Made by a program: the position numbers and the translations under genes. Shown here piece after piece: positions 1 through 1,251 of a DNA stretch of 64,000 nucleotides. Every line of letters begins with the position of its first letter. Positions within the stretch are counted from its first letter, which is position 1. This DNA comes from Thalassospira lucentensis (GTDB lineage Bacteria > Pseudomonadota > Alphaproteobacteria > Rhodospirillales > Thalassospiraceae), in the NCBI RefSeq assembly GCF_001613805.1, contig NZ_LPVY01000013.1, positions 1-64,000 on the forward strand, written 5' to 3'. The notes under the pieces were generated by a model. That model saw only the letters and a list, made by a program, of their open reading frames with translations. It had not been told where the DNA came from and did no database searches.

Positions 1-17
1 TTCCTGCCTTATGGGCC

Positions 18-145
18 TGTGCTCATAACTTGAAGGCTGAGGCTGTGAAGAAATCGCTCCAGTGGAGCGATTTTAAGCCGAAGGTTGAACACGGGCGATA
101 GCCCGCGCGCAGACTGCGTAGGTTCAAATCCTGCCCCCGTAACCA
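18..145 (+). pseudogene. Initiator tRNA-Met remnant split by an 87-bp repeat
   Basis: Bases 117-145 give a T-arm (stem GTAGG/CCTGC around loop TTCAAAT), the 3' acceptor strand, discriminator A and encoded CCA, closely matching bacterial initiator tRNA-Met. Position 72 would be A, the initiator hallmark of a C1-A72 mismatch. Bases 20-36 carry the CAT anticodon loop CTCATAA and the start of the variable loop in the right order and strand. Between them, where only a few bases belong, lies the structured repeat at 31-117. The sequence before base 18 does not resemble the D-arm, so the 5' half looks degraded or rearranged. I call it a non-functional remnant. An unusual processed tRNA is possible but less likely. 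Confidence 0.6.
31..117 (+). repeat. Structured 87-bp repeat, copy 1
   Basis: This copy differs from the one at 210-296 at only 4 of 87 positions. It contains a perfect 10-bp stem (AAATCGCTCC at 51-60 with GGAGCGATTT at 64-73, loop AGT) and a second hairpin (CGGGC at 92-96 with GCCCG at 101-105). It interrupts the initiator-tRNA-like sequence at the variable loop. It encodes no protein. It resembles a REP- or MITE-like palindromic element, but I do not recognise the family. Confidence 0.8.
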
Positions 146-152
146 AAATGTC

Positions 153-179
153 AAAGGCTCGCCATTCGGCGGGTCTTTT
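153..179 (+). terminator. Intrinsic terminator after the tRNA remnant
   Basis: An 11-bp stem (153-163 with 168-178, two G-T wobbles) around the loop ATTC ends in a short T tract. Its placement 8 bases after the CCA end is typical for a tRNA transcription unit, which supports this having once been a real tRNA gene. Confidence 0.7.
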
Positions 180-209
180 GCATTTTTGATTGTCTGGTCG
201 GGTTATGCC

Positions 210-296
210 TGAAGGCTCAGGCTGTCAAGAAATCGCTCCAGTGGAGCGATTTTAAGCCGAAGGTTGAGCACGGGCGGTAGCCCGCGCGCAGACTGC
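210..296 (+). repeat. Structured 87-bp repeat, copy 2
   Basis: Second copy of the element at 31-117, about 95% identical and in the same orientation, starting 179 bp downstream. The 10-bp stem is at 230-239/243-252 and the GC hairpin at 271-275/280-284. An additional inverted repeat (GCCTGA at 207-212, TCAGGC at 217-222) is perfect here but imperfect in copy 1. The right flank is not tRNA-like, so the element moved or duplicated independently of the tRNA. Confidence 0.8.
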
Positions 297-317
297 AGAG
301 GCATATGGATCAGACAA

Positions 318-347
318 TAAAAAAACCCGCTGTTGGCGCAGCGGGTT
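318..347 (-). terminator. Terminator of the TRAP/GMC/FAH operon
   Basis: On the minus strand a perfect 9-bp stem AACCCGCTG/CAGCGGGTT with a 6-nt loop runs into a T-rich tract. It lies about 45 bp after the stop codon of the FAH-family gene, the last gene of the minus-strand operon. Confidence 0.85.
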
Positions 348-393
348 CCTGGAAAGGCTTAAACTTGACCCCTCTAGAAATCTGAGGACGAGT

Positions 394-1251
394 TTAGGCG
401 ACGGGATCGCTTTCACTGACGACGATTTGGCGCTGTGTGCCGAGACCCTCGACCGATAGTTCGACGATATCACCCGTGCTCAGAAAGCGAGGTGGCGTCA
501 GGCCTAGACCCACCCCTTCCGGCGTTCCGGTTGCAATGATATCGCCCGGCATAAGGCGCATGAAACCGGACATATAGGATATGATCTCGGCCACAGGAAA
601 AATCATGTCGGAGGTAGAGCTGTTCTGCACGGTCTCGCCGTTAACAGAAAGCTTCAAGGTCAGGTTTTGAGGGTCGCCTGCTTCGTCGGGTGTTACAAGC
701 CACGGGCCGATCGGTCCGAAATTCGGTGCTGATTTTCCTTTGATCCATTGTCCGCCGCGCTCGATCTGATAGGCGCGTTCGCTGACATCGTTGATCGTGC
801 AAAAGCCTGCGACATAATCAAGCGCGTCGTCCTTGCTGACATAGCTGCACGGGCGGCCGATAATGATGCCAAGTTCAACCTCCCAATCTGTTTTGACAGA
901 GCCGCGCGGCAAGATAATGGGATCGTTCGGCCCGCAGATGCACGATGTGGATTTTGAAAACAGCACCGGTTCTTTGGGTTCGGAGTTGTTGGTTTCGCGT
1001 GCATGACGGGCATAGTTCAAACCGACCGCATAAAAGTTACGTGCCGCCCCAACACACGGGCCGATCCGTGTACCGGGATCGACAATCGGCAAATCAGACA
1101 GGTCGCGAGCAGCCAGGGCCGCCAGTTGTTCGCAATTCACGGTTTCGGGCGTGAAATCGGCAATCAAACGACTGAGGTCGCGGATGTTTCCTTCCTGATC
1201 AAGGTATCCGGGCTTTTCGTCACCAATCGGTCCGTGGCGGAGAAACTTCAT
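394..1251 (-). CDS. Fumarylacetoacetate hydrolase (FAH) family protein
   Basis: A 285-residue protein of the FAH fold used by fumarylacetoacetases, 2-hydroxyhepta-2,4-diene-1,7-dioate isomerases and acylpyruvases. These act on beta-diketo acids or isomerise enols in a divalent-metal-dependent way. The core shows NYARHARET, EPVLFSKSTSCICGP, a metal-binding WEVELGIIIGRP segment, GFCTINDVSER and FPVAEIISYMSG. The start follows an AAGGA ribosome site. It is the last gene of the operon with a TRAP transporter and a GMC oxidoreductase, so it may hydrolyse or isomerise a late intermediate of the imported acid. The exact substrate cannot be read from sequence. Confidence 0.9.
   Translation of the reverse strand: MKFLRHGPIGDEKPGYLDQEGNIRDLSRLIADFTPETVNCEQLAALAARDLSDLPIVDPGTRIGPCVGAARNFYAVGLNYARHARETNNSEPKEPVLFSKSTSCICGPNDPIILPRGSVKTDWEVELGIIIGRPCSYVSKDDALDYVAGFCTINDVSERAYQIERGGQWIKGKSAPNFGPIGPWLVTPDEAGDPQNLTLKLSVNGETVQNSSTSDMIFPVAEIISYMSGFMRLMPGDIIATGTPEGVGLGLTPPRFLSTGDIVELSVEGLGTQRQIVVSESDPVA

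What the first reader, a model, noticed from the sequence alone, without database searches (positions are those of the whole stretch)
18..145. Initiator-tRNA-like sequence interrupted at the variable loop by a structured repeat
The anticodon loop and the T-arm/acceptor/CCA end of an initiator tRNA-Met flank an 87-bp three-stem element. A matching terminator follows. Interruptions of tRNA genes usually lie in the anticodon loop (introns) or at the 3' end (islands), not at the variable loop. Either a palindromic element jumped into a tRNA gene copy, or the tRNA end was captured by the element. The 5' half does not match, so I favour a dead copy.
Basis: partly seen in the sequence, partly recalled or inferred. 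Interest (0 to 1): 0.7.

Follow-up and report, generated by a model that had tools for sequence, protein, structure and literature searches.

The report
tRNA-derived hairpin repeat beside initiator tRNA
This is most likely not a working split tRNA gene but a folded repeat element, partly built from pieces of the initiator tRNA gene, that sits behind intact copies of that gene in Thalassospira and a few related bacteria and looks like a by-product of DNA repeatedly inserting at the tRNA's end.

Summary
Window 21-36 matches the anticodon arm of initiator tRNA-Met (15/16), 119-145 its T-arm to CCA (26/27), a three-stem element lies between them at the variable-loop position, and a terminator follows. 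The window begins at a contig edge, so nothing upstream can be read. In a same-species genome the same unit lies downstream of an intact initiator tRNA and its terminator, after 5S rRNA. So no working tRNA gene is shown to be split. The unit (E1) is a repeat family found in 23 of 29 genomes of the genus and, strongly, in 2 of 383 sampled genomes of the class outside it. Its stems show compensatory changes. Its left arm is an inverted copy of the tRNA 3' half. The tRNA 3' end in the window looks like a displaced copy with its old terminator. At one orthologous locus E1 is present in the window's genome and absent from the same-species genome. In five genomes a large serine recombinase gene ends exactly at this tRNA 3' end. 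Best reading: a small tRNA-derived palindromic module added at the tRNA-fMet 3' end and spread among rRNA operons. The enzyme is inferred.

The parts
1..20 (+). Truncated left arm of E1 (stub of the inverted tRNA-fMet arm; TTATGGGC at 9-16, loop CTGT at 17-20)
   Evidence: Pairs with 21-28 as a palindrome (sequence). By itself the stub does not match the tRNA reverse complement above chance (661 of 5000 shuffles); the full arm in G041 does. Cut off by the contig edge.
21..36 (+). tRNA-fMet anticodon-arm-like segment GCTCATAACTTGAAGG
   Evidence: 15 of 16 identical to the intact tRNA-fMet at C18:12-88; 0 of 5000 shuffles as good.
37..118 (+). E1 core: stem 1 (37-44 with 76-83), stem 2 (50-60 with 64-74, apex CCAGTGG), stem 3 (89-95 with 102-108), closing helix (84-86 with 112-114)
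   Evidence: Consensus fold and pair counts on 23 copies; window positions converted from alignment A3.
119..145 (+). Displaced tRNA-fMet 3' end: T-arm, acceptor strand, CCA
   Evidence: 26 of 27 identical to the intact tRNA-fMet; the same join of E1 to a tRNA 3' end is at G041 C2:1895483-1895661, C22:1-47 and C24:1-47.
146..188 (+). Terminator (type T4) of the displaced tRNA end
   Evidence: Hairpin plus T run. A closely similar terminator directly follows an intact tRNA-fMet in G005 (L069).
189..319 (+). Second E1 copy (core about 208-298) inside flanking inverted repeats (189-209 with 299-319)
   Evidence: 93% identical to copy 1 over 92 nt; fold z-score -5.5; covariance model E 3.6e-20. 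It lacks the GCTCATAAC piece.

Best explanation
The feature is one member of a family of small structured repeat modules (called E1 here) partly built from the 3' half of tRNA-fMet. They sit at the downstream edge of initiator tRNA genes, mostly at rRNA operon ends, in Thalassospira. A module consists of a terminator, an inverted tRNA 3'-half arm, a forward anticodon-arm piece and three covarying hairpins; it holds no recognisable gene. It was added at the 3' end of a tRNA-fMet gene so that the tRNA stays intact on the left, while the old 3' end (T-arm to CCA) and its old terminator are pushed to the right of the module. The window shows the right part of such a module with the displaced tRNA end and terminator; the intact tRNA would lie off the contig edge. 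Shown: the intact upstream tRNA in the same species, displaced tRNA ends followed by terminators that elsewhere directly follow intact tRNAs, presence versus absence of E1 at one orthologous locus within the species, and use of the same tRNA end as the junction of serine-recombinase genes. Inferred: that modules moved by site-specific recombination in trans at this end, or were copied between rRNA operons by homologous recombination, and that the conserved fold matters at the level of DNA or RNA.
For: Same-species G041: 5S - intact tRNA-fMet - terminator T1 - inverted arm - E1 - tRNA 3' end - terminator T2 - second palindromic element E2 - tRNA 3' end - T3; 186 bp separate the CCA from the displaced end. 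In another G041 operon T2 follows the intact tRNA directly, and the flanking DNA is 96% identical over 1532 aligned bases to G000 C24. C24 instead starts with the E1 right end joined to the tRNA end and T2. A terminator like the window's follows an intact tRNA-fMet in G005. The left arm aligns to the reverse complement of tRNA-fMet, 0 of 5000 shuffles as good in each of three copies tested (L065, L066, G041; L066 was compared with the window genome's tRNA). AGGTTC of the T-arm follows the E1 core within 12 nt in 8 of 34 distinct copies. A tRNA 3' end lies 50-300 nt upstream of the core's second GAAGG in 16 of 21 copies with at least 200 nt of that flank, against 301 of 20000 random 250-nt window segments. 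Large serine recombinase genes (Pfam Recombinase and Zn_ribbon_recom in the two tested) end exactly at CCCCGCAACCA in five genomes. Covariation.
Against: No recombinase or transposase gene lies in the 186-bp module of G041; its open frames are at most 83 aa and do not look like genes. No excised or circular form was looked for. At the single filled/empty locus the filled side starts at a contig edge, so the full insert there is not read; gene conversion from another rRNA operon would give the same result. Five of the 21 copies lack an upstream tRNA end. T-arm sequence after the core is absent in most copies (26 of 34 lack AGGTTC). A degenerate third copy in the window's genome (C24:10092-10185) shows no clear tRNA flank. 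L060 and L118 have forward tRNA sequence in place of the inverted arm. Correspondence between the inverted arm and the adjacent tRNA's T-stem is only moderate (198 of 20000 permutations as good, 9 pairs, relatedness not removed).
Confidence: 0.6

Rival explanations
1. Scar of a genomic island: an element with a large serine recombinase (or an ICE) integrated at tRNA-fMet and later lost its interior. E1 plus terminator are what is left of its end, and the tRNA 3' end is the ordinary attachment-site duplicate.
For: Five recombinase genes abut the tRNA 3' end. In G009 a TrbC-like conjugation gene lies about 2 kb from a tRNA 3' end, a terminator and a short stretch like the E1 right end (26 nt matched). 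Partial tRNA copies from integration are described as widespread (PMC9897764, passages read).
Against: In the five recombinase cases the stretch behind the tRNA end differs between genomes while the recombinase gene is 93-100% identical, so it looks like resident DNA rather than the island's own end (inference). E1 is a conserved, covarying unit with its own inverted arm.
Confidence: 0.25
2. A palindromic repeat of the REP/RIME/RPE sort jumped once into the variable loop of a tRNA 3'-half relic, and the compound then spread with rRNA operons.
For: The element lies between anticodon piece and T-arm in the window, G041 and G286, and in split form in G378. GAAGG is repeated on both sides of stems 1-2 and is invariant or nearly so at both places. 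A sister element, E2, has hairpins in the T-loop of a tRNA 3' end (my reading). Relics of the tRNA without E1 lie behind a DUF3422 gene in G041, G009 and G020, while G024 has E1 there; other genomes printed have no relic at that place. L060 and L118 keep forward tRNA sequence on the left.
Against: The inverted left arm of most copies is not explained by a simple jump. The pattern scans found no free-standing core elsewhere in the window.
Confidence: 0.3
3. A functional small RNA or processing/termination element at the end of rRNA operons, under selection for its fold.
For: Two-sided compensatory changes in 10 of 26 pairs. The whole G041 unit folds better than 200 shuffles as RNA and as DNA (z -4.4 and -4.0). 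A weak match to the Brucella sRNA family BASRCI153 (25.1 bits against a cut-off of 137, E about 0.0004).
Against: In G041 E1 lies beyond a strong terminator-like hairpin, so little transcription of it is expected (inference). It is missing at some operon ends of the same species. The Rfam match is far below cut-off and agrees best in two hairpins.
Confidence: 0.1
4. A real interrupted initiator tRNA gene whose variable-loop insert is removed from the transcript.
For: Both flanks match the tRNA in order.
Against: No copy that I read has a complete tRNA 5' half in front of the element; most have an inverted arm and two have a short forward piece. Intact tRNA-fMet genes exist in this and the same-species genome. 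ARAGORN finds none here.
Confidence: 0.01

Closest known systems
Partial tRNA copies left by islands, prophages and ICEs at tRNA genes
   Same: A displaced tRNA 3' end with CCA lies downstream of an intact copy (G041), and the tRNA end is the junction of recombinase genes in five genomes.
   Different: The unit between the copies in G041 is 186 bp, has no recognisable gene, and is itself partly made of inverted tRNA sequence.
REP/BIME and Rhizobium intergenic mosaic elements (RIME), bacterial palindromic repeats
   Same: Short, strongly palindromic, several stems, multiple variants.
   Different: Few copies per genome (0-5 in 29 genomes), frequent association with tRNA-fMet ends, and tRNA-derived arms. 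No sequence comparison with RIME itself was made.
Rickettsia palindromic elements
   Same: The review PMC2229807 (passages) gives 105-146 bp long stem-loops and says that repeats have been found inserted in RNA genes.
   Different: The flanks of E1 in the window are a partial tRNA, not a working RNA gene. No sequence comparison was made.
E. coli tyrT repeats with the rtT RNA (recalled, from no call)
   Same: A repeat downstream of a tRNA gene that includes a copy of the tRNA 3' end.
   Different: No inverted tRNA arm or covarying three-stem core is recalled for it; the window has no Rfam match at gathering threshold.

Membership tests
Attachment-site duplicate of a tRNA-targeted island | Intact tRNA on one side, 3' fragment of the same tRNA on the other | tested here: met
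   G041 operon A; in the window itself only the fragment side can be read.
Attachment-site duplicate of a tRNA-targeted island | Recombinase gene and cargo between the two copies | tested here: not met
   186 bp without a recognisable gene between the copies in G041. Recombinase genes abut the same end in five other genomes.
MITE | Terminal inverted repeats and target-site duplication | tested here: inconclusive
   The outer inverted arms are tRNA-derived and not present in every copy. GAAGG direct repeats flank stems 1-2. No clean empty site of the core alone was found.
MITE | A related full-length transposon | not tested
   No transposase with matching ends was searched for.
REP/RIME-type palindromic repeat | Stem-loop forming, multiple copies in a genome and in related genomes | tested here: met
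REP/RIME-type palindromic repeat | Sequence homology to a described REP or RIME family | not tested
   No RIME sequence was at hand; only Rfam was scanned, without a hit at cut-off.
Intron-containing tRNA gene | Complete 5' and 3' tRNA halves flanking the insert | tested here: not met
   No 5' half in the G041 copy, an inverted arm instead; not readable for the window copy itself.
Rfam BASRCI153 sRNA | Score at or above the gathering cut-off | tested here: not met
   25.1 against 137 bits, E 0.00047.

The most novel reading that the evidence does not exclude
Initiator tRNA 3' ends at rRNA operons of Thalassospira act as docking sites where gene-less cassettes, each carrying a terminator and tRNA-derived palindromes, are added one after another. 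They would be moved in trans by the large serine recombinases that use the same site, so that an rRNA operon's tail is a rearrangeable array of terminators and hairpins.
Probability: 0.2. Interest if true: 0.7.

Novelty: new variant of a known kind. Interest (0 to 1): 0.45.

Why it matters
It suggests that small modular DNA can build up behind an essential tRNA gene at rRNA operon ends without breaking it, and ties those modules to the same tRNA end that recombinase-bearing islands use. If the modules move, this would be a very small class of integrative element, testable in a marine bacterium. It also warns that tRNA-like hits at contig edges may be displaced relics.

Tried and rejected
ARAGORN and Rfam at gathering thresholds found nothing in the window. 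The E1 stretch 20-125 had no match in plasmid or phage records, and an exact pattern had none in viral contigs. Rfam at loose thresholds gave only below-threshold hits. A first stem register gave poor pairing and was my own misplacement; the corrected one is. A LexA-like box downstream of several copies did not explain the element. Paper searches listed no paper whose title or shown abstract start describes this element; passages of five papers were seen or sought (in one search none of the terms occurred), so this is not proof of absence from print. The T-stem correspondence test was only moderately positive.

Rows dropped before counts: of 25 copies listed, two (L003, degenerate; L122, fused to a tRNA) were left out of the alignments. 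Alignment A2 with 18 copies was made and not used further. Counts use 34 distinct copies found by regular expression in the loci fetched, not all hits; copies with identical sequence count once; L193 (G286) was not among them, 13 of the 34 had too little upstream flank. One search used 9 hand-picked pairs and left out L151, L069 and the other-family pairs L193 and L198.

Full report
What is in the window. Window base 1 is base 1 of contig C13 of a 4.55 Mb, 24-contig genome. Bases 21-36 match the anticodon arm of the genome's own intact tRNA-fMet (C18:12-88) at 15 of 16 positions, and 119-145 match its T-arm, acceptor strand and CCA at 26 of 27; neither was reached in 5000 dinucleotide shuffles. 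A terminator-like hairpin follows at 146-188, and a second copy of the element lies at about 208-298. ARAGORN finds no tRNA.

It is a repeat family with a conserved fold. Aligning 23 copies (two of the 25 listed were left out) gives 26 pairs with 97.3% of cells paired and 10 pairs with changes on both sides. No shuffle of 500 reached the observed percentage, pair count, cell count or covariation score; the number of further pair types was not above shuffles. The structure was derived from these same sequences. A covariance model finds E1 in 23 of 29 genomes of the genus at E up to 0.001, with 0 to 5 matches each. In a class-wide sample of 385 genomes it finds 8; two are this genome and another of the genus. 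Of the six outside, G378 (three copies) and G286 score above 70 bits and four are weak, 32-43 bits. A copy in G033, of another family of the order, was found by DNA similarity in the search of 40 relatives. There was no match in plasmid or phage records or, by exact pattern, in viral contigs.

Where the copies sit. In the same-species genome G041 one rRNA operon end reads: 5S, intact tRNA-fMet, terminator T1, an arm that is an inverted copy of the tRNA from T-arm to anticodon, a short loop, the anticodon-like piece, the three-stem core, a tRNA 3' end, terminator T2, a second palindromic element (E2), another tRNA 3' end, terminator T3. A second operon end has intact tRNA, T1 and E1 without the tRNA end behind it; a third has intact tRNA followed directly by T2 and E2; the fourth 5S has no tRNA-fMet in the roughly 0.9 kb read behind it. 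The order tRNA-fMet, terminator, E1 is also seen in L055, L063 and L065 with a complete tRNA, in L053, L054 and L062 with the tRNA cut by the edge of the locus, and in G378. Of 34 distinct copies in the loci fetched, 21 have at least 200 nt of upstream flank; 16 of these 21 have a tRNA 3' end 50-300 nt upstream of the core's second GAAGG, 6 a longer tRNA-fMet pattern, and 5 none, against 301 of 20000 random 250-nt segments of the window. The window genome's degenerate third copy at C24:10092-10185 shows no clear tRNA flank.

The 'anticodon' piece belongs to the element. It is present, with up to two changes, in 21 of the 23 aligned copies; the two without it are the second window copy and L069. 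Upstream of it lies, in most aligned copies, an inverted tRNA arm; L060 and L118 have forward tRNA sequence instead. The inverted arm aligns to the reverse complement of tRNA-fMet, 0 of 5000 shuffles as good in L065, L066 and G041. Together arm and piece form a palindrome (TTATGAGC, loop, GCTCATAA). In the window only the stub of this arm remains, and by itself it does not match above chance (661 of 5000 shuffles). The right flank of the core begins with AGGTTC of the T-arm in 8 of 34 copies. The full order anticodon piece, core, T-arm to CCA occurs in the window, in G041 and in G286; in G378 the T-arm-to-CCA part is itself split by a 27-nt palindrome, although the last ten bases there could also be part of that palindrome's own surroundings. 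So the variable-loop position of the core is real and recurrent, but in a partial copy, not in a working gene.

How it got there. The tRNA 3' end behind E1 looks displaced. Terminator T2, which follows the displaced end in G041 operon A and in G000 C22 and C24, directly follows an intact tRNA in G041 operon C. The flank of G000 C24 is 96% identical over 1532 aligned bases to that of operon C, starting at the T-arm; C24 instead begins with the E1 right end. That is presence versus absence of E1 at one orthologous place within a species. C24 starts at a contig edge, so the whole insert is not read there. A terminator closely like the window's follows an intact tRNA in G005 (L069). In G041 operon A 186 bp lie between the CCA and the displaced end, with no open frame that looks like a gene. 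In five genomes (G004, G007, G009, G012, G014) a large serine recombinase gene, 93-100% identical to that of G007, ends exactly at the tRNA 3' end (domains by Pfam for the G007 and G014 genes). What follows differs: a terminator and E1 in G007; a terminator and a left part of E1 fused to a tRNA-fMet in G014; terminators and, as far as printed, the beginning of an E2-like element in G004, G009 and G012. In G012 a second recombinase of the same kind (49% identical) lies beside a tRNA 3' half that starts in the anticodon loop. The tRNA-fMet is thus a repeated insertion site, at its 3' end and at the anticodon loop. I infer that E1 modules were added and copied at this site, by recombination in trans or by gene conversion between rRNA operons; no step of the movement itself was observed.

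What speaks against this. No recombinase lies in the module and no circle was sought. Most copies lack the T-arm on the right (26 of 34 lack AGGTTC). The inverted arm resembles the T-stem of its own neighbour tRNA more than that of others, but only at the level of 198 of 20000 permutations in 9 hand-picked pairs, without removal of relatedness. A locus downstream of a DUF3422 gene holds tRNA-fMet pieces without E1 in G041, G009 and G020 and with E1 in G024, which also fits a single jump into a relic. A match to the Brucella sRNA family BASRCI153 has an E-value of about 0.0004 but 25.1 bits against a cut-off of 137; it is not taken as membership.

Known context. Partial tRNA copies from integration of mobile elements are described as widespread (PMC9897764, passages read). 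Small bacterial repeats inserted in RNA genes are mentioned in PMC2229807 (passages). Rhizobial REP elements are mentioned, and the RIME paper is cited, in PMC2873474 (passages). The E. coli tyrT repeat is recalled, not looked up successfully (searches listed nothing on it that I could use). No paper in the listings describes this element by title or shown abstract start.

Verdict. It is a new variant of a known kind of thing, of moderate interest.

Noticed in passing
G041 C2:1895660-1895800, L004/L005 1-215, L256 around 2636-2830: A second palindromic element (E2) with the same plan, an inverted tRNA end on the left and hairpins between GGTTC and AATCCTGCCCCCGCAACCA on the right, i.e. in the T-loop.
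   Followed up: partly
L122:1383-1570 (G014 C1): The left part of an E1 copy is fused into a tRNA-fMet so that the tRNA's 5' acceptor strand is replaced; a serine recombinase gene ends just upstream.
   Followed up: no
window 320-413 and G000 C18:230-323: A repeated stretch of about 94 bp with a terminator-like hairpin, 83-93% alike in G000 C18 and six other genomes of the genus; in G000, G016, G020 and G021 it lies a few hundred bases behind a tRNA-fMet 3' end.
   Followed up: no
L151:8458-8480, L156:3149-3171, L163:1590-1612, L183:1612-1634: A GTTC-N7-GTTC box (like the LexA box of alphaproteobacteria, recalled) and a similar leader lie downstream of several E1 or E1-like stretches.
   Followed up: partly
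L250:7707-7778 (G000 C18): A second tRNA-like sequence resembling tRNA-fMet but with a changed anticodon loop and acceptor, several kilobases behind the intact tRNA-fMet.
   Followed up: no
L118, L214, L216, L218 downstream of the DUF3422 gene: tRNA-fMet fragments at one chromosomal locus in several species, followed by different DNA in each, as at an island insertion site.
   Followed up: partly
G041 C2:4186000-4187025: One of four 5S genes has no tRNA-fMet behind it in the stretch read.
   Followed up: no
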